From Streptococcus ruminicola (GTDB lineage: Bacteria; Bacillota; Bacilli; Lactobacillales; Streptococcaceae): a stretch of DNA of 64,000 bases. This document shows positions 17,860 to 27,750 of the stretch, piece by piece. The first letter of the stretch is position 1, and every line of letters starts with the position of its first letter. The notes below the pieces were generated by a model. It was not told where the DNA came from and searched no databases. It was given only the letters and a program-made list of their open reading frames with translations. The stretch is from assembly GCF_011387195.1 (NCBI RefSeq), contig NZ_CP046919.1, positions 1,302,001-1,366,000 on the forward strand, in the 5' to 3' direction. Both the position numbers and the translations under genes were made by a program.

Positions 17860-20511
17860 ATGTCAAAAGAACTTTCACCAAAATATAACCCAGCTGAAGT
17901 TGAAGCTGGTCGTTATCAAAAATGGTTAGATGAAGATGTTTTCAAGCCTTCTGGCGATAAGAAAGCACATCCGTATTCTATCGTTATTCCACCACCAAAC
18001 GTAACAGGTAAACTTCACCTTGGTCACGCTTGGGATACAACTTTGCAAGATATTATTATCCGTCAAAAACGTATGCAAGGTTTTGATACTCTATGGCTTC
18101 CAGGTATGGACCACGCTGGTATCGCAACACAAGCAAAAGTTGAAGCACGTCTTGCTGAAGATGGTATTTCACGTTACGACCTTGGTCGTGAAAAATTCCT
18201 TGATAAAGTTTGGGAATGGAAAGATGAATACGCATCAACAATCAAACAACAATGGGGTAAAATGGGTATCTCTGTAGATTACTCACGTGAACGTTTCACC
18301 CTTGACGAAGGTTTGTCAAAAGCAGTTCGTAAAGTCTTTGTTCAACTTTACAAAAAAGGTTGGATTTACCGTGGTGAATTTATCATCAACTGGGATCCAA
18401 AAGCTCGTACAGCTCTTTCTGATATCGAAGTTATCCACAAAGATGTCGAAGGTGCATTCTACCACATGAACTACATGTTGGAAGATGGTTCACGTAGCCT
18501 TGAAGTGGCAACAACTCGTCCTGAAACAATGTTTGGTGACGTTGCCGTTGCGGTTAACCCAAATGATGACCGTTACAAAGATTTGATTGGTAAAAATGTT
18601 ATCCTTCCAATCGTTAACAAAGCTATTCCAATCGTTGGTGACGAACACGCTGACCCAGAATTCGGTACTGGTGTGGTTAAAATCACTCCTGCACATGACC
18701 CTAACGACTTCCTAGTTGGTCAACGTCACAATTTGCCACAAATCAACGTTATGAACGACGATGGTACAATGAACGAACTTGCTGGTGAATTCGCTGGTAT
18801 GGATCGTTTTGAAGCACGTAAAGCTGTCGTTAAAAAATTGGAAGAAATCGGTGCGCTTGTTGAAATCGAAAAAATGGTTCACAGCGTTGGTCACTCAGAA
18901 CGTACTGGTGTGCCAGTTGAACCTCGTTTGTCAACACAATGGTTCGTTAAAATGGATCAATTGGCTAAAAATGCCATTGCTAACCAAGACACTGATGACG
19001 AAGTGAAATTCTACCCACCACGTTTCAACGATACTTTCCTTCAATGGATGGAAAATGTTCACGACTGGGTTATTTCTCGTCAATTATGGTGGGGTCACCA
19101 AATCCCAGCATGGTATAATGCTGAAGGTGAAATGTACGTCGGTGAAGAAGCTCCAGAAGGTGACGGATGGACTCAAGACGAAGACGTTCTTGATACTTGG
19201 TTTAGTTCAGCACTATGGCCATTCTCAACAATGGGTTGGCCCGACACAGAAGCAGAAGACTTCAAACGTTACTTCCCAACATCTACATTGGTAACTGGTT
19301 ACGATATCATCTTCTTCTGGGTATCACGTATGATTTTCCAATCATTGGAATTCACAGGACGTCGTCCATTTGAAAACGTGCTTATCCACGGTCTTATCCG
19401 TGACGAACAAGGACGTAAAATGTCTAAATCACTTGGTAACGGTATTGACCCAATGGACGTTATCGAAAAATATGGTGCTGATGCCCTTCGTTGGTTCTTG
19501 TCAAACGGTTCTGCACCAGGTCAAGACGTTCGTTTCTCTTACGAAAAAATGGACGCTGCTTGGAACTTCATTAACAAAATTTGGAACATCTCTCGTTACA
19601 TCTTGATGAATAATGAAGACCTTACACTTGAACAAGCTAGCGCTAATGTTGAAAAAGTTGCTGCTGGTACAGCTGGTAACGTTACTGACCGTTGGATTCT
19701 CCACAACTTGAACGAAACAATCGCTAAAGTTACTGAAAACTTTGATAAATTTGAATTTGGTGTAGCTGGTCACATCCTTTACAACTTCATCTGGGATGAA
19801 TTTGCTGACTGGTACGTTGAATTGACTAAAGAAGTACTTTACAGCGATAATGAAGATGAAAAAGTTATCACTCGCTCAGTTCTTCTTTACACACTTGATA
19901 AAATCCTTCGCTTGCTTCACCCAATCATGCCATTCGTAACTGAAGAAATCTTTGAACAAATTTCTGAAGGTTCAATCGTAACAGCTGAATACCCAACTGT
20001 TAATCCAGCATTTGAAAATGAAGCTGCGCACAAAGGTGTTGAAAGTCTTAAAGACCTTATCCGTGCCGTTCGTAACGCACGTAGCGAAGTGAACGTTGCA
20101 CCAAGCAAACCAATCACACTTCTTGTTAAGACAAGCGACAAAGAATTGGAAGACTTCTTTAACAGCAATGTGAACTACATCAAACGTTTCACAAATCCTG
20201 AAAAACTAGAAATTTCTTCTGATATCGAAGCTCCAGAATTGGCAATGTCTAGCGTTATCACAGGTGCTGAAATCTTCTTGCCACTTGCTGACCTTCTTAA
20301 CGTTGAAGAAGAATTGGCACGTCTTGACAAAGAACTTGCTAAATGGCAAAAAGAATTGGACATGGTTGCTCGCAAGCTTGGTAACGAAAAATTCGTCGCT
20401 AACGCTAAACCAGAAGTTGTCCAAAAAGAACGTGACAAACAAGTTGACTACCAAGCCAAATACGACGCAACAGTCGCTCGTATCGAAGATATGAAAAAAT
20501 TGGTGAAATAA
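17860..20511 (+). CDS. valS: Valyl-tRNA synthetase
   Basis: 883 residues, normal for the enzyme. Class I signatures [15 protein letters not shown] (HLGH, near 47) and KMSKSLGNG (near 525) are intact, as is the editing (CP1) region with [15 protein letters not shown] near 220. The anticodon-binding domain and C-terminal coiled coil ([18 protein letters not shown]) follow. It charges tRNA-Val. RBS AAAGGA precedes ATG 17860. Its last 147 bp are duplicated at 24229-24375, on the far side of the methyltransferase island. Codon usage is that of a highly expressed gene. Confidence 0.98.
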
Positions 20512-20545: not shown

Positions 20546-20614
20546 ATATATAAATTTTGACCCACCACTTGACAAAATTGGGTGAAAATTGCTATCCTGG
20601 TATAAGGTGAAAAT

Positions 20615-21850
20615 ATGATGAATATAATTGATTTATTTAGTGGAGCTGGGGGATTGACCGAAGGCTTTAGAAATTCAAATTTTAATATATTAGGGCATGT
20701 TGAAAAAGATACTTCTGCTTCAAAAACATTAATGTTGAGAGAGGCTTACCATTACTTAAAGAGTCAAAAGAAACTTTTACTATATAAAAGTTTTATGAAT
20801 AGAGAAATCTCCTTAGAGGAATTATTTTTAAAAGTTCCCAAAGAAGTATTGGATAAAACTATCAATTTGGAGATAAATGATCAGAATTTGAGTAATATTT
20901 TTAACTATTTTGATAATTTTTTAGGAAATGTAGATGGTATTATCGGTGGACCTCCCTGTCAAGCTTATTCTACGATTGGTAGGGCGAGAAATGCAGGTAA
21001 GAAAGATTCAGATGGAAGAATTTATTTATATAAGTATTATATTAAATTTTTAAAGAGATATAATCCTAAATTTTTTGTTTTTGAGAATGTAAAAGGATTA
21101 TTGAGTTTTAAAGATTCAACTGGTGAGAAATTACTCCCAAAGATGGAAATGGAATTTTTAGAAGCAGGTTATAGTATAGAGTATAAAATCTTAAATACTA
21201 AAGATTTTGGTGTACCTCAGTCAAGAGAGAGGTTAATTATTTTTGGTGTTCAAAAAAAATATAAAGGAGCTACAAATAATTTTTTTGAACAGCTTGAAGA
21301 GTTAGTTGAACCTGAAGTTAGTGTCCGAAGTGCTTTTAAAGATTTACCTTTTTTAACGTCTGGAGAAGAAAATAATTTTTATTTACCAATTAGTAATGAG
21401 TATATAGTGAAGTACTTTAGACAGGATGATAATCTTCCGCTAACTCAAAATATTTCTAGGAAGAATAATAGTAATGACTTGAAAATTTATCACTTAGTTG
21501 CAAAAGCAAAGAGTAGAGGTAAGAATCTCAAGTATGATGAACTAGATACAACTTTACAAACTCACCGACACACAGATAAATTCTTGGATAGATTCAAGGC
21601 ACTTTCTTGGGATTCCCCTTCTCATACTATAGTTGCACATATAGCAAAGGATGGTCATCATTATATACATCCTGATATAAAGCAAAATCGTTCGATTACT
21701 GTTAGAGAAGCTGCACGCTTGCAAGGGTTCCCTGATAACTACTATTTTTTAGATTCACGGACAAGTGCATTTACACAAATAGGTAATGCTGTACCACCTA
21801 TATTTAGCAGAAAAATAGCAGAAGCTATTGTAAACTTAGGAGATTTCTAA
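20615..21850 (+). CDS. DNA (cytosine-5-)-methyltransferase
   Basis: 411 residues with all core motifs of m5C methyltransferases: I (DLFSGAGGLTEGF, 6-18), IV with catalytic Cys115 (GGPPCQAYS), VI (FVFENVKG, ENV at 157-159), VIII (QSRERLIIFG, 202-211), IX (TVREAARLQGFP) and X (QIGNAVPP). The 211-365 stretch is the target-recognition region. An extra helical insert of about 60 residues separates motifs I and IV. ATG 20615 or 20618 follows AAGGTG; a TTGACA at 20569 with TATCCT 18 nt on is a possible promoter. The DNA is visibly more AT-rich than valS. Convergent with the GHKL ATPase gene; no classical restriction nuclease adjoins it. Confidence 0.95.
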   Translation: MMNIIDLFSGAGGLTEGFRNSNFNILGHVEKDTSASKTLMLREAYHYLKSQKKLLLYKSFMNREISLEELFLKVPKEVLDKTINLEINDQNLSNIFNYFDNFLGNVDGIIGGPPCQAYSTIGRARNAGKKDSDGRIYLYKYYIKFLKRYNPKFFVFENVKGLLSFKDSTGEKLLPKMEMEFLEAGYSIEYKILNTKDFGVPQSRERLIIFGVQKKYKGATNNFFEQLEELVEPEVSVRSAFKDLPFLTSGEENNFYLPISNEYIVKYFRQDDNLPLTQNISRKNNSNDLKIYHLVAKAKSRGKNLKYDELDTTLQTHRHTDKFLDRFKALSWDSPSHTIVAHIAKDGHHYIHPDIKQNRSITVREAARLQGFPDNYYFLDSRTSAFTQIGNAVPPIFSRKIAEAIVNLGDF

Positions 21851-21888
21851 CTAAAAATGGTCAACAATCTAGTTGACCATTTTTAGTT
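21849..21888. terminator. Bidirectional terminator between the methyltransferase and the GHKL ATPase
   Basis: A perfect 17-bp stem (AACTAAAAATGGTCAAC / GTTGACCATTTTTAGTT) with loop AATCTA. It spans the stop-codon ends of both convergent genes. Confidence 0.93.
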
Positions 21889-23670
21889 ATTCATATCATC
21901 AAATGCATACATAAGTTGAGGGGAAACACAATTCCAAATTATTTTTAATGTATCAAATTGAGGAAAATTTTCTGCATCATGCATTAATAAATCTAGGTGT
22001 TTATTAACTTTATTATTTTCAAATTCATCAATTAAGCTACTCACTCTACGATTAGTAATTTTACCATGTTTTGATAATAGTTGTACCATTATCTTGTATT
22101 TAATTGCGAAAGCAAGAGTATCAATTTCGCTTTCGTTTTTGGGAAGTTTACAATTATAATTTTTTTCTTTAATTATGTCAGTAGCCTCTTGAAAATTTTT
22201 TCTAAGGTATATTGTTGTGGTGCTTTCAATCATTGCTCGTAGTAATAAACCTTGAGTTAGTATGAAACGATTAACTTCTTTTTCTTCAGCAGCCTCTATC
22301 ATTTCTTCTCGTAACATTTGTATCTTAGTGCCAACATAACTAGGAACATTGAAGTTCTTAGGAATCAATTCTTTGTAGACACTATGATCTTTTTTATAGG
22401 ATTGGGTTGACTTCGTTACAGTGTCAAGAATTTTTTGTTTGTCGGAATCAGAGATAGTAATATTGTCATCTTCTAATTTTTTACTGATATTATTTATGAC
22501 TTTAGAATCTTCAACTGAAAGGTTTGTTTGTAGAATAATGTGATTTCTTTTGATGGTATTTTCAGCTTTAACGTCTCTAGCTTTTTTACGTTTTTGCTTC
22601 CATTCACGTTGAATAATACCAATCAACTTGTTGAGATTACTTTTGATATTTAATAATTCTTCATCGGCTTCCCAGCGAATAGATTGTCTATCTGTTGAAA
22701 TAAAGTCTTTAAAATTATCATCATCTAAGTAGTCTATATTGAAATATCCAACAGCATATGTATAGAAATAGTCGTTTGATCGATTATCAAACTGCGTAGT
22801 AGATTGTTCGCTAGCCAGTTTTCCCCTCGATAAAACCGAAAAACCTTGTTTATTAGCTGCTAAAGGAGTTTTCTTGGTAAAGACAACCCCTGTAATACCA
22901 TAATTTTTTAGTACTTGGATAACATTTCTTGATTGATTACTTTCTATATTTGTAAAATCTTCAGGAAAATTAAAAGTAAATTCAGTTTCCTCTTTTTTAG
23001 GTTGAATACTTTTTATAAATGCTTTTTCATCTAGTTCAAAAGTAGTTCCATCGTTAGATGTTAGAGTGACTAAAAAATTTTCACGAGAATATTTATTAAA
23101 ACGCTTTGAGAGACTATCATATAGGGTATCCAATCTTGTTATGCTTTTTAATGTTATATCTTTAATTGTTATTTTAGTACCATTCTTTTCTGAAGTATCA
23201 AAATTATATAGAAGAGTTTTTGGGTGATATGTAGCTTCAGAAGAATTTTGAATTTTTTTATAGTTTAACTCGAAAGAATTTCGCTTACCATTCTGTATGC
23301 TATCGATTATAATTGTATCAGCAATACCAAATAAGGCTAATTTTCCTAATCCTTTTTTTCCAGTTACTTTTCTTCCTAATTTTGAGAGTCCATATTCTTT
23401 TGTTTCTTTATTTTCAACATCCGACAATCTTCTATTGCGGGCAATGGTTAGGAAATTTTCGTTTAATTCTTTTGCAGACATACCATTACCATCATCAGAT
23501 ACGACAATAATCTTTTTTTTATAGTCGATTGAAATTTGAACATTATGACTATCAGCATCCCAAGAATTACTAATCAGTTCGGCAATTGCTTGTGGAAGCT
23601 GTTTATATAGACCAATACCAAGATGTTGGATAGTTGCTGCATGATAATTCAATGAAAATTCTTCTGACAT
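21883..23670 (-). CDS. GHKL (MutL/MORC/Hsp90-type) ATPase, probable partner of the methyltransferase
   Basis: 595 residues. The N-terminal ATPase has the Bergerat-fold boxes: ELISNSWDADSHNV (31-44; Glu31, Asn35), VSDDGNGMS (57-65) and GKKGLGKLALFGIAD (104-118). A transducer region reaches to about 350. Residues about 350-430 are charged and helical. The C-terminus (about 430-595) is an unrecognised helical domain (FILTQGLLLRAMIESTTTIY). No PD-(D/E)XK, HNH or GIY-YIG nuclease motif is obvious. GHKL ATPases next to DNA methylases are known from restriction-like systems, so an ATP-driven defence role is plausible but not shown. The start ATG 23670 follows TAGGAGTG; a minus-strand extended -10 (TGA-TATACT) lies near 23700. 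Confidence 0.85.
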   Translation of the reverse strand: MSEEFSLNYHAATIQHLGIGLYKQLPQAIAELISNSWDADSHNVQISIDYKKKIIVVSDDGNGMSAKELNENFLTIARNRRLSDVENKETKEYGLSKLGRKVTGKKGLGKLALFGIADTIIIDSIQNGKRNSFELNYKKIQNSSEATYHPKTLLYNFDTSEKNGTKITIKDITLKSITRLDTLYDSLSKRFNKYSRENFLVTLTSNDGTTFELDEKAFIKSIQPKKEETEFTFNFPEDFTNIESNQSRNVIQVLKNYGITGVVFTKKTPLAANKQGFSVLSRGKLASEQSTTQFDNRSNDYFYTYAVGYFNIDYLDDDNFKDFISTDRQSIRWEADEELLNIKSNLNKLIGIIQREWKQKRKKARDVKAENTIKRNHIILQTNLSVEDSKVINNISKKLEDDNITISDSDKQKILDTVTKSTQSYKKDHSVYKELIPKNFNVPSYVGTKIQMLREEMIEAAEEKEVNRFILTQGLLLRAMIESTTTIYLRKNFQEATDIIKEKNYNCKLPKNESEIDTLAFAIKYKIMVQLLSKHGKITNRRVSSLIDEFENNKVNKHLDLLMHDAENFPQFDTLKIIWNCVSPQLMYAFDDMNN

Positions 23671-23779
23671 ATAACACTCCTAGATTTTATGTTAAACTTA
23701 GTATATCATAAATATTTTACAGAATTACAGTCGATCCATGTTTTTTATATATTATTGTAAAATTGCAAAAGGAGTCCCT

Positions 23780-24226
23780 ATGTCATTTGAATCAGATATT
23801 TTTAGAAAGAAGCGTGTGGTGTTTGAGTGCTTGGTGGTGTTTGGATTTGAGAAAAATCAGGCTGGTTATGACTACGCGGAGCTGATTTTGAATGGCGATT
23901 TTGAGGTGCGAGTTCATGTTTCACTGGATGGTCAGGTGTCAGCAAGGGTGATTGATACCGATTTAAATGAAGAGTATCTTGCTCTTCATGTGGCTGGTTC
24001 GAGTGGCAGTTTTATTGGGAAGGTTCGTGAAGCTTATCAAGAGGTTCTTGAAAGAGTGGCTGAAGCTTGCTTTGAAGCTCTGCCATTTCTCAATCCACAA
24101 ACCAATCGTCTCGCACACTACTTGCAAGCGACATATGGCGACATGTATGACCATCCTTTTGAAAAATATCCTGAGTTTTCGTCTTACCGTTACTCGAAGA
24201 ATCATAAGTGGTATGCGTTGATATGA
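23780..24226 (+). pseudogene. Truncated copy of the YjbR-EVE gene
   Basis: 148 codons from ATG 23780 (RBS AAAAGGAG). They match the first ~146 residues of the intact protein at 27751-28836 closely (for instance EAYQEVLERVAEACFEALPF in both). The match stops at KWY, and the frame closes after two or three junction codons. The remaining YjbR signature and the whole EVE domain are missing. The break abuts the duplicated valS end, so truncation and duplication arose in the same recombination. It might still be translated as an N-terminal fragment. Confidence 0.85.
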
Positions 24227-24228
24227 TA

Positions 24229-24375
24229 GTCGCACGCAAACTTGGCAACGAAAAGTTCGTCGCTAACGCTAAACCAGAAGTTGTCCAAAAAGAACGTGAC
24301 AAACAAGTTGACTACCAAGCTAAATACGACGCAACAGTCGCTCGTATCGAAGATATGAAAAAATTGGTGAAATAA
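24229..24375 (+). pseudogene. Duplicated 3' end of valS
   Basis: 147 bp aligned without gaps to valS 20365-20511. I count six differences, all third-position and synonymous, five of them in the first 27 bp. It encodes the last 48 residues and stop of ValRS. It is an allele from a functional valS of a related strain, left without its front part. No promoter or start serves it. Confidence 0.93.
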
Positions 24376-25224: not shown

Positions 25225-25788
25225 ATGACTCAGGTTACCAAACGGGCTTTAGAAGATTCTTTGAAGCATTTGTTGTTAAAAAAGCCACTCACTAAGATTA
25301 CTATTAAAGATATCGCAGAGGATTGTGGGATTAATCGCATGACTTTTTATTATCATTTCAAGGATATTTATGATTTGGTGGAGTGGTCTTGTGTTGAGGA
25401 TGCTCAAAAAGCTTTGGGCGAGAATAGGCACTATGATAGCTGGGAAAATGGGCTTCTTGATATTTTTAAGGCAGTTAAAGAGAATAAGCCATTTATTATG
25501 AATGTCTATCATTCTGTTAGTCGAGAACAAATTGAATGTTACCTTTATCAGTTAACTTATCAATTAATGCTTGATGTTGTTGAAGAAAAAGCTGTCGGGT
25601 TAATGGTAAGTGATAAGCAAAAAGAATTTATTGCTGATTTTTACAAGTATGCTTTGGTTGGATTAATGTTAGATTGGATAAAAAATGATATGAAAGAAAA
25701 GCCAGAAGATATCGTTGAACGGCTAGCTATTCTGGTTCATGGCAATATTGTGTCAGCTTTAAATCACTATCATCAAAAAAATAATTAA
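25225..25788 (+). CDS. TetR-family regulator, probable controller of the oleate hydratase gene
   Basis: 187 residues. The N-terminal HTH (TKITIKDIAEDCGINRMTFYYHFKD split around residues 20-46) is typical TetR/AcrR. The C-terminus is the ligand domain of the DhaS-like subgroup. A TATAAT at about 25191 precedes the GAGGGG-type ribosome site. It lies directly upstream of, and on the same strand as, the fatty acid hydratase gene. It therefore probably senses a fatty acid or acyl-CoA (inference from position). Confidence 0.87.
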   Translation: MTQVTKRALEDSLKHLLLKKPLTKITIKDIAEDCGINRMTFYYHFKDIYDLVEWSCVEDAQKALGENRHYDSWENGLLDIFKAVKENKPFIMNVYHSVSREQIECYLYQLTYQLMLDVVEEKAVGLMVSDKQKEFIADFYKYALVGLMLDWIKNDMKEKPEDIVERLAILVHGNIVSALNHYHQKNN

Positions 25789-25790
25789 TC

Positions 25791-25832
25791 AAAAGACTTT
25801 AAATGATAAAAAATTTATCATTTGGTCTTTTT
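25791..25832 (+). terminator. tetR terminator containing a perfect dyad
   Basis: AAATGATAAA-AAA-TTTATCATTT (25801-25823), flanked by AAAGAC / GGTCTTT and a T run. The AAATGATAA half also occurs upstream of tetR at 25130-25138, so the dyad could double as a TetR operator. Confidence 0.75.
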
Positions 25833-25838
25833 TGTTTA

Positions 25839-25868
25839 TTGAAGTAAAATCTTTGAATTATCTATAAT
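25839..25868 (+). promoter_or_regulatory. Promoter of the oleate hydratase gene
   Basis: TTGAAG (25839-25844), 18 nt, perfect TATAAT (25863-25868). It abuts the dyad at 25801-25823. Confidence 0.7.
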
Positions 25869-25899
25869 GAAGGTAACAAAAAAGATGGAGGTTCTCGAT

Positions 25900-27678
25900 A
25901 TGTATTATTCAAGTGGTAATTATGAAGCATTTGCCCGTCCGTTGAAGCCAGAAGGTGTCGATCACAAATCAGCCTATATTGTAGGTGCTGGTTTGGCAGC
26001 TTTGTCTGCAGCATGCTTTTTAGTGAGAGATGCTCAAATGCCTGGTAAAAATATCCATATTCTTGAAAAAGAGCCCATTTCTGGTGGTGCTTGTGATGGT
26101 TACCAATATAGTGACATTGGTTATGTCATGCGTGGTGGTCGTGAAATGGATAATCACTTCGAGTGTATGTGGGAATTATTCCGTTCGATTCCTTCAATTG
26201 AGACAGAAGGTGTTAGTGTCTTAGATGAATTTTATTGGTTAAACAAAGCAGATCCAAATTATTCTCTTTGTCGAGCGACTGAAAAGCAAGGTCAAGATGC
26301 TCATACGGATAAAAAATTTGGATTGTCTGATAAAGCAGCTCTTGAAATTATGAAACTTTATTTTACGCCAGATGAAGAATTGTATAACAGAAGAATTGAT
26401 GAATTCTTTGATGATGAAGTGTTTGGATCAAATTTTTGGCTATACTGGCGAACAATGTTTGCTTTTGAAAATTGGCATTCAGCCTTAGAAATGAAACGTT
26501 ACCTTAAACGCTATATTAACCATATTAGTGGTTTACCAGATTTTACTGCTTTGCGTTTCACACGCTATAATCAATACGAATCAATGATTTTGCCAATGGT
26601 AAAATACCTAGAATCATTTGGAGTTGTTTTCCATTACAACACAAAGGTGATTAACGTCGAATTTGATTGTCAAAAGGATAAAAAAGTTGCTAAACGGCTT
26701 GATATTCTTTCTGATGCTGAAAAAAGTAGTATTGATTTGACTGAAAATGATTTTGTGTTTATCACAAATGGTGGTTGTGTTGAAAATTCAAGTTATGGTA
26801 GTCAAGATAAGCCAGCTTGCTTTAATAAAGACATCAAAGAAGGAAATGGCTGGGATATGTGGCGAAAAATTGCGGATCAAGATGAGTCATTTGGTCATCC
26901 GGATAAGTTTTGTTCGTCACCTGAAAAATCAAATTGGATGAGCGCGACCGTGACTACCTTGGATGATAAGATTCCAACATTTATTCAAAAAATCTGTAAA
27001 CGTGATCCGTTTTCTGGCAACATTGTGACTGGGGGGATTGTTTCGGTAAAAGATTCAAATTGGCTTTTGAGTTGGACTGTTAACCGACAACCACAATTTA
27101 GAAATCAACCTAAAAATGAGTTAACTGTCTGGGTTTATGCGCTTTTTACTGATAGGGAAGGAAATTATATTAAAAAGCCAATGCGTGATTGTACAGGACA
27201 AGAGATTTGTGCAGAGTGGCTCTATCATTTAGGAGTTCCAGTTGAGGACATTGACAAGTTAGCTGCAAATAGTGCAAAGACCGTTCCATGTATGATGCCT
27301 TACATTACAGCTTTCTTTATGCCACGCGAAAAAGGTGATCGTCCTGATGTTGTTCCAGATGGCGCTATTAATTTTGCTTTCTTAGGTCAATTTGCTGAGA
27401 CAGAACGCGATACTATTTTTACGACAGAGTATTCTATCCGAACTGCCATGGAAGCCGTTTATACTTTGTTTAATGTTGATCGAGCAGTCCCAGAAGTTTG
27501 GGCAAGTACTTATGATATTCGTGATCTTTTACATGCGACAGTTGCTCTAAGGGATGGAAAACCAATTACTGAGATGAACTTAAATTTTGTTGAAAAATTT
27601 ATCTTAAAACAATTCTTACGAAAAGTTGAAGGAACAGACATTGAAAAACTTTTACGAGATTATCACTTGATTAAATAA
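25900..27678 (+). CDS. ohyA: Oleate hydratase (67-kDa myosin-cross-reactive antigen)
   Basis: 592 residues from ATG 25900, preferred over ATG 25867 because GGAGG lies at 25887 and family members start MYYSSGNYEAFARP. N-terminal FAD site IVGAGLAALSAACFLV near 30 and the family run DGYQYSDIGYVMRGGREMDN near 75. The enzyme adds water to the cis-9 double bond of oleate or linoleate, making 10-hydroxy acids and detoxifying host unsaturated fatty acids. It acts at the inner membrane face. Monocistronic with its own terminator, and likely regulated by the adjacent TetR protein. Confidence 0.96.
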   Translation: MYYSSGNYEAFARPLKPEGVDHKSAYIVGAGLAALSAACFLVRDAQMPGKNIHILEKEPISGGACDGYQYSDIGYVMRGGREMDNHFECMWELFRSIPSIETEGVSVLDEFYWLNKADPNYSLCRATEKQGQDAHTDKKFGLSDKAALEIMKLYFTPDEELYNRRIDEFFDDEVFGSNFWLYWRTMFAFENWHSALEMKRYLKRYINHISGLPDFTALRFTRYNQYESMILPMVKYLESFGVVFHYNTKVINVEFDCQKDKKVAKRLDILSDAEKSSIDLTENDFVFITNGGCVENSSYGSQDKPACFNKDIKEGNGWDMWRKIADQDESFGHPDKFCSSPEKSNWMSATVTTLDDKIPTFIQKICKRDPFSGNIVTGGIVSVKDSNWLLSWTVNRQPQFRNQPKNELTVWVYALFTDREGNYIKKPMRDCTGQEICAEWLYHLGVPVEDIDKLAANSAKTVPCMMPYITAFFMPREKGDRPDVVPDGAINFAFLGQFAETERDTIFTTEYSIRTAMEAVYTLFNVDRAVPEVWASTYDIRDLLHATVALRDGKPITEMNLNFVEKFILKQFLRKVEGTDIEKLLRDYHLIK

Positions 27679-27719: not shown

Positions 27720-27750
27720 GCTATACTTATGCTAAATGAAAGGAGCTTCT

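What the first reader, a model, noticed from the sequence alone, without database searches (positions are those of the whole stretch)
20560..24375. Methyltransferase plus GHKL/MORC-like ATPase island: candidate undescribed defence or modification system
A complete cytosine-5 methyltransferase (catalytic PCQ, ENV, QSRER motifs) converges on a 595-residue GHKL ATPase with intact N, DGNG and GKKGLG boxes. The pair is AT-rich, sits alone between two valS 3' ends, and has no recognisable nuclease. GHKL ATPases next to DNA methylases are known from restriction-like systems, so the ATPase and its unassigned C-terminal helical domain are the likely effector. The two-gene, nuclease-free form is unusual to me; novelty is inference.
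Basis: partly seen in the sequence, partly recalled or inferred. Interest (0 to 1): 0.78.

Follow-up and report, generated by a model that had tools for sequence, protein, structure and literature searches.

The report
DNA methylase paired with HEPN-tailed ATPase
A two-gene Streptococcus island pairs a DNA-marking enzyme with a MORC-like ATPase that, where its relatives carry a DNA-cutting part, carries a helical domain resembling RNA-cutting toxins, suggesting a restriction-like defence that may act through a different weapon.

Summary
In detail: an intact 5-methylcytosine methyltransferase (20615-21850 +) converges on an intact 595-aa GHKL ATPase (21883-23670 -), between valS and a 150-bp copy of the valS end. 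It is not a wholly unknown system. The ATPase N-terminal part belongs to the paraMORC / BbrUII-HgiDII restriction-enzyme group, and a cytosine methylase lies within one gene of the ATPase in 14 of 15 other genomes found, directly adjacent in 13. What is unusual is the C-terminal domain. Relatives with 54-55% identical methylases carry a nuclease-type tail there. This family has a helical domain without a Pfam match above cut-off in the window protein. Its predicted structure (pLDDT 91.8) gives a VIA-align list headed by 18 HEPN rows, but Foldseek and sequence profiles give no significant match, and the canonical HEPN Arg is missing. Related pairs at the same valS site carry a SpbK/TIR-type tail. 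A version sits beside a Lactiplantibacillus prophage integrase. Best reading: restriction-like defence with a MORC-like sensor gating an exchangeable effector. ParaMORC-HEPN fusions were noted in 2013, so: new variant of a known kind.

The parts
20615..21850 (+). C5-cytosine DNA methyltransferase, 411 aa (self-marking enzyme)
   Evidence: Pfam PF00145 3.8e-61; PADLOC DrmMII PDLC02649 1.1e-138; HaeIII methylase structure 4e-33
21848..21889 (.). perfect 18-bp inverted repeat spanning the two convergent stops, probably a shared bidirectional terminator
   Evidence: repeat I8; terminator role inferred
21883..23670 (-). GHKL/S5 ATPase with C-terminal helical domain, 595 aa (paraMORC-type)
22546..23670 (-). 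GHKL + S5 module and following long helix (residues 1-375), shared with BbrUII/HgiDII restriction enzymes
21886..22398 (-). C-terminal all-helical domain, residues 425-595, HEPN-like predicted fold; invariant R478 (22237-22239) and H564 (21979-21981)
   Evidence: AF2 pLDDT 91.8; VIA first 18 rows HEPN; Foldseek none at E<=0.001; conservation
20362..20511 (+). 3' end of intact valS, left copy of the 150-bp flanking repeat
   Evidence: repeat D2
24226..24375 (+). second copy of the last 150 bp of valS, right border; what follows matches the empty site of a relative
   Evidence: empty site in G450
23738..24226 (+). truncated copy of a yjbR/EVE-like gene, probably carried in with the island
   Evidence: 78% to the complete copy at 27739; in G448 an intact yjbR-like gene directly follows valS

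Best explanation
A mobile two-gene defence cassette of restriction-modification logic. Step 1 (from family membership; target site unknown): the methyltransferase puts 5-methylcytosine on host DNA. Step 2 (inferred from MORC, Hsp90 and BbrUII relatives): the ATPase dimerises through its GHKL/S5 module, clamps DNA and recognises unmarked target sites or another phage DNA state. Step 3 (inferred): ATP binding or hydrolysis releases the C-terminal HEPN-like domain. Step 4 (inferred, weakest): that domain does not cut DNA like its nuclease-tailed counterparts but acts as an RNase-type or other growth-arresting effector, so the infected cell stops supporting the phage. The methylase doubles as the antidote that keeps the ATPase silent on self DNA.
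For: Restriction-family N-module. A cytosine methylase within one gene of the ATPase in 14 of 15 other genomes with an ATPase hit, directly adjacent in 13, and directly adjacent in 4 of 4 loci with this C-terminal type whose context I saw, window included. Different tails on related sensors: nuclease-type, SpbK/TIR-type, histidine-kinase-like in L034, HEPN-like. Methylases 98% identical stand beside a nuclease-tailed and a different 720-aa GHKL protein in otherwise matching loci. Prophage copy beside the integrase. ATPase residues, R478 and H564 invariant in 51 of 51. In S. sanguinis the ATPase is broken and the methylase intact, as expected if the ATPase is the costly half. Analogies: the DISARM ATPase is stimulated by unmethylated and reduced by methylated DNA (PMC9142583 passages); PrrC is an RNase held latent by a restriction system (PMC3506569 passages).
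Confidence: 0.48

Rival explanations
1. Ordinary type II restriction-modification system: the ATPase is a divergent BbrUII/HgiDII-like restriction enzyme that still cleaves DNA, with its nuclease site hidden in the helical domain or formed with a host nuclease.
For: N-module scores 207.6 bits to the restriction-enzyme model and 7e-24 to PADLOC REase_II; linkage with a 5mC methylase as in known type II systems.
Against: Score is below the family cut-off of 550 and the match stops at residue 373 of 595, whereas L023, L024 and L033 match profile positions 1-650 or 2-649. The ELK nuclease motif seen by eye in relatives is absent. No Pfam nuclease family reaches its cut-off in the window protein; weak GhoS endoribonuclease matches occur in 12 of 51 members (best E 0.015, place not shown) and not in the 16 isolated C-terminal domains.
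Confidence: 0.27
2. HEPN-like domain is structural or DNA/RNA-binding only; the pair is a modification system in which the ATPase loads, releases or regulates the methylase, or condenses DNA like eukaryotic MORCs.
For: Canonical HEPN Arg missing; MORC2/MORC3 structural similarity of the N-module; no recognised nuclease.
Against: Invariant His at the end of the penultimate helix and invariant Arg in an earlier helix in 51 of 51 look like a retained site; an H-only HEPN family is on record (Parep1/8, PMC3710099 passages); sister proteins carry toxic-type tails.
Confidence: 0.2
3. Decaying or passenger DNA left by transformation at a recombination hotspot, with no current role.
For: Patchy distribution; frameshifted ATPase in S. 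sanguinis; duplicated valS end and truncated yjbR mark a messy insertion.
Against: Window copies intact; dN/dS about 0.11 against S. oralis, with dS near saturation; catalytic residues invariant.
Confidence: 0.05

Closest known systems
BbrUII/HgiDII family restriction enzymes (NCBIfam NF050001)
   Same: GHKL/S5 module over residues 6-373 and a neighbouring 5mC methylase
   Different: No nuclease-type C-terminal half; score 207.6 against cut-off 550; HEPN-like domain instead
paraMORC ATPases (Iyer 2008, PMC2292703)
   Same: GHKL + S5 architecture, restriction-modification neighbourhood, family-specific C-terminal extension
   Different: Not paraMORC3 (RE-fold tail) nor paraMORC4 (TIR tail) by the scans run; paraMORC1, 2 and 5 not compared
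Ymh-HEPN fused to paraMORC (Anantharaman 2013, PMC3710099)
   Same: HEPN-type domain at the C-terminus of a paraMORC in a restriction-modification locus
   Different: This domain has no PF09509 hit, no significant profile similarity to 8 Ymh loci and no canonical Rx4-6H
GHKL-Shedu / VcSduA (PMC12137116)
   Same: GHKL ATPase with a C-terminal effector; anti-phage activity shown there (passages)
   Different: Effector there is a DUF4263 nuclease, independent system; here HEPN-like with a methylase partner
DISARM (DrmMII methylase)
   Same: Best PADLOC hit is DrmMII; a 60% identical methylase on an L. plantarum plasmid lies beside genes annotated helicase-related and DUF1998
   Different: No such genes beside the pair in the window
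PrrC/RloC coupled to restriction systems
   Same: HEPN-type RNase held by a restriction system is the functional analogy (passages)
   Different: ABC-type ATPase rather than GHKL; separate gene

Membership tests
C5-cytosine DNA methyltransferase | PF00145 match with PCQ, ENV and QxRxR motifs | tested here: met
   3.8e-61; motifs in translation
BbrUII/HgiDII restriction enzyme (NF050001) | score at or above the equivalog cut-off, full-length match | tested here: not met
   207.6 against 550 bits, profile 2-373 of 659
BbrUII/HgiDII restriction enzyme (NF050001) | nuclease-type C-terminal half | tested here: not met
   profile match ends at residue 373; ELK motif seen by eye in relatives L074 and L076, absent here
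paraMORC ATPase | intact GHKL motifs followed by an S5 domain | tested here: met
paraMORC ATPase | restriction-modification gene neighbourhood | tested here: met
paraMORC3 / Shedu type I-D | RE-fold (DUF4263) C-terminal nuclease | tested here: not met
   no such Pfam hit in the window protein at E<=1
paraMORC4 | TIR C-terminal domain | tested here: not met
   no spbK/TIR hit in the window protein at E<=1; spbK hits in L027, L028, L031, L032
HEPN domain | HEPN fold | tested here: inconclusive
HEPN domain | Rx4-6H motif at the end of helix 3 | tested here: not met
   H564 invariant at a helix end but no conserved R at the right spacing; such a motif anywhere in the C-terminal part in 5 of 51
HEPN domain | sequence-profile similarity to HEPN families | tested here: inconclusive
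   no HEPN Pfam family listed for 51 members (first 25 of 38 families shown) or 16 isolated domains; hhalign to HepT-like (26 of 30 loci) and Ymh (8 loci, one with an empty core) not above reversed controls
DISARM | DrmA helicase and DrmB DUF1998 next to the methylase | tested here: not met
   neighbours are valS, the ATPase and a yjbR fragment
Type II restriction-modification system | site-specific DNA cleavage blocked by the methylase | not testable with these tools
   needs biochemistry

The most novel reading that the evidence does not exclude
A family of 'restriction-like' systems in which one MORC-type, methylation-licensed sensor module is combined with exchangeable effectors (DNase, TIR, kinase-like, and here a HEPN-like domain with a relocated Arg), so that unmarked DNA triggers cell-wide arrest rather than DNA cutting.
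Probability: 0.38. Interest if true: 0.68.

Novelty: new variant of a known kind. Interest (0 to 1): 0.52.

Why it matters
If true, it shows that a restriction-modification architecture can trade its DNA-cutting half for a growth-arrest effector while keeping methylase and sensor, and gives a compact two-gene model for how MORC-type ATPases read DNA methylation. The nuclease-, TIR- and HEPN-like-tailed relatives are a natural domain-swap series that makes the sensor's trigger directly testable. It also points to the valS 3' flank as a Streptococcus site for such cassettes.

Tried and rejected
Pfam, NCBIfam and PADLOC scans for a nuclease in the C-terminal domain: none above cut-off in the window protein. 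Among 51 members (E<=10, first 25 of 38 families shown, positions given only for the window protein) families other than the ATPase ones matched at most 12 members: GhoS endoribonuclease 12 (best E 0.015), SACS 2 (0.0015), one single-member hit at 8.3e-05; I take these as chance. In 16 isolated domains the best E was 0.016. PDB sequence search with the C-terminal profile: only E 0.089 and above. Search for the C-terminal domain in other architectures: found in this ATPase family, in 8 shorter proteins that look like pieces of it, and in one 943-aa protein with other domains (P0121); 1 of 398 Bacilli genomes, the window's own. The two protein searches depend on shared 5-residue words, so distant architectures may be missed. 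HEPN sequence membership (Ymh, HepT-like): not supported. TIR tails of L027, L028, L031, L032: Pfam at E<=0.1 listed no TIR family, so this rests on the PADLOC spbK model (that SpbK is a TIR protein is recalled); the loop reads H-T-x-x-D, which resembles but does not fit the Hx[ST]xD motif given for paraMORC4. Phage records: one 28.9% N-module hit annotated ParaMORC3. Plasmids: no record with one place covering 80% of the query for four ATPase queries. Viral contigs: three further ATPase queries found no relative; the alignment and the methylase query found three loci each. A direct type II restriction reading was kept as a rival. Poly-A phase variation in the ATPase linker was considered: one S. 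sanguinis frameshift there and a 373-aa S. suis protein ending near the same place (P0024); too little to claim. Papers: all ten searches listed no title that is a report of this pair; the papers I opened I saw only in sections or passages, so this is not proof of absence. The BbrUII primary paper, a B. cereus R-M paper and the Shedu Mol Cell paper are not held. Origin of the 150-bp valS duplication: copy 1 differs from the empty-site relative G450 by 1 base, copy 2 by 8; mechanism left open. HEPN labels of the rows: 1ylm, 1jog, 1wwp and 2q00 are named HEPN in PMC3710099 and several rows say HEPN in their titles; Roquin (ranks 1-4), the MntA-HepT rows and SO_3166 are recalled. Several of the 18 rows are the same protein.
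Full report
1. What is there. The window is G000:C1:1302001-1366000 of a 2.05-Mb genome. I take it as Streptococcus because two same-genus genomes, G510 and G009, have contigs of the same length as the named records of S. oralis DD24 and S. sanguinis B14863032 found (210346 and 318984 bases). After valS (17860-20511 +) comes a 411-aa C5-cytosine methyltransferase (20615-21850 +), then, converging on it, a 595-aa ATPase (21883-23670 -). The 32 bp between the stops lie inside a perfect 18-bp inverted repeat. To the right are a truncated copy of a yjbR-like gene (23738-24226; 78% to the complete copy at 27739) and a second copy of the last 150 bp of valS (24226-24375, 95%). A relative, G450, has the empty site: its valS runs straight into the sequence that follows the second copy. 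The pair is AT-rich (29.8% GC against 41.0% for valS).

2. The methyltransferase. It matches Pfam DNA_methylase (3.8e-61) and, best in PADLOC, DrmMII (1.1e-138). Its relatives serve several systems. A 60% identical enzyme on an L. plantarum plasmid lies near genes annotated helicase-related and DUF1998 (DISARM-like). Others sit beside GHKL ATPases with various tails. The target sequence is unknown.

5. Active-site residues. R478 and H564 (end of the penultimate helix) are invariant in 51 of 51; position 482 is D or E in 51 of 51. [quoted passage not shown] The canonical Rx4-6H Arg is missing: such a motif appears anywhere in the C-terminal part in 5 of 51. The survey lists a HEPN family with H but without R, Parep1/8, structure 2q00, which is among the VIA rows. 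Whether R478 has taken over is inference; I had no coordinates to measure.

6. Effector exchange. L023 and L024 (46-48% in the N-module; methylases 54-55% identical) match the BbrUII profile from 1 to 650; in two related tails I read a PD-(D/E)XK-like ELK motif by eye (L074, L076), while Pfam gives L023 and L024 only weak nuclease matches below cut-off (NucS_C E 0.0043 at best). More distant pairs, with a methylase 23-26% identical, carry a tail matching the PADLOC spbK model at 1.7e-19 to 3.2e-24 (L027, L028, L031, L032), although Pfam lists no TIR family for them at E<=0.1 and the loop motif H-T-x-x-D does not strictly fit the paraMORC4 motif. In G390 and G148, loci with the same HaeIII-type neighbours have methylases 98% identical but a nuclease-type ATPase in one and, in the other, a 720-aa GHKL protein plus a 425-aa gene, neither of which I scanned. 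One sensor-plus-methylase design is thus used with several effectors.

7. Co-occurrence. Searches (different thresholds) gave 15 genomes other than the window's with an ATPase hit. A cytosine methylase homologue is directly adjacent in 13 of 15 (12 of the 13 loci, and G202); in G148 it is one gene away; in G006 a different, adenine-type methylase (motif recalled) lies near a GHKL gene that looks split. For this C-terminal type, context was visible in 4 loci: window, S. oralis, S. sanguinis (ATPase frameshifted) and an L. plantarum prophage contig; the methylase is adjacent in 4 of 4. The prophage pair lies next to an integrase (PF00589 3.9e-28). A result against the antidote idea: in viral contig L116, which has another tail, the methylase reads as two pieces while the ATPase is open.

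8. A site for such cassettes. Directly downstream of valS, methylase-GHKL genes of three kinds occur in 6 genomes: this type in G000, G510 and G009; TIR-type in G307 and G035; the split one in G006. The other nine loci have no valS in the stretch read (G390, G279, G623, G158, G148, G094, G019, G023, G014). The S. oralis and S. sanguinis methylases differ little (dS 0.07) while their valS genes differ more (dS 0.79), so the cassette moved between these species recently. Between window and S. oralis both genes show dN about 0.23 with dS about 2: constrained, though dS is near saturation. At E<=1e-20, 4 of 284 Streptococcus genomes have an ATPase hit, 3 with this tail.

9. How it probably works. 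Shown: a methylase and an intact GHKL ATPase in recurrent linkage, a shared restriction-type N-module, and no recognised nuclease domain. Inferred: 5mC marks self; the ATPase clamps and tests DNA; unmarked DNA frees the HEPN-like domain; that domain arrests the cell or attacks RNA. Analogies: GHKL-Shedu VcSduA, where both the ATPase and nuclease sites are needed for anti-phage activity (PMC12137116 passages); the DISARM ATPase, reduced by methylated DNA (PMC9142583 passages); PrrC, an RNase kept latent by a restriction system (PMC3506569 passages).

10. Verdict. Real, functional-looking and linked; not an unknown kind. The 2013 survey states that Ymh HEPN domains are fused to paraMORCs in restriction-modification loci, so the idea is in print; I did not find this domain family, its fold or its place in an effector-exchange series in the held library (searches listed in Tried and rejected). 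On checking, the split methylase of L116 and the weaker TIR evidence led me to lower the main confidence from 0.50 to 0.48 and the novel case from 0.40 to 0.38, and to raise the type II rival from 0.25 to 0.27. New variant of a known kind; interest moderate.

Noticed in passing
L027:5225-8565 and L032:5380-8727: At the valS 3' flank of two other Streptococcus genomes, a different cytosine methylase is followed by a GHKL protein with a SpbK/TIR-type tail and a 132-aa gene.
   Followed up: partly
L023:4293-9524 and L029:2368-9127: Matching loci with a HaeIII-type methylase and endonuclease (PF09556 tested in L023), whose second methylases are 98% identical but whose GHKL partners differ.
   Followed up: partly
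window 23738-24375: Truncated yjbR copy joined to a duplicated valS tail: trace of how the island arrived, perhaps one-sided recombination during transformation (inference).
   Followed up: partly
L026:7722-9505: S. sanguinis ATPase is frameshifted in the lysine-rich linker while its methylase is intact; short proteins that look like C-terminal pieces exist elsewhere.
   Followed up: partly
L115:3986-8405: L. plantarum prophage contig carries the same type of pair in tandem beside its integrase.
   Followed up: yes
L116:3935-7132: Nuclease-type relative whose methylase reads as two overlapping pieces while the ATPase is open.
   Followed up: no
L071:4296-7985: Another valS-flank island: adenine-type methylase and a GHKL/histidine-kinase-like gene that looks split.
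   Followed up: no
window 25225-27678: A 603-aa protein that looks like an oleate hydratase with a TetR-like gene upstream (both recalled resemblances).
   Followed up: no
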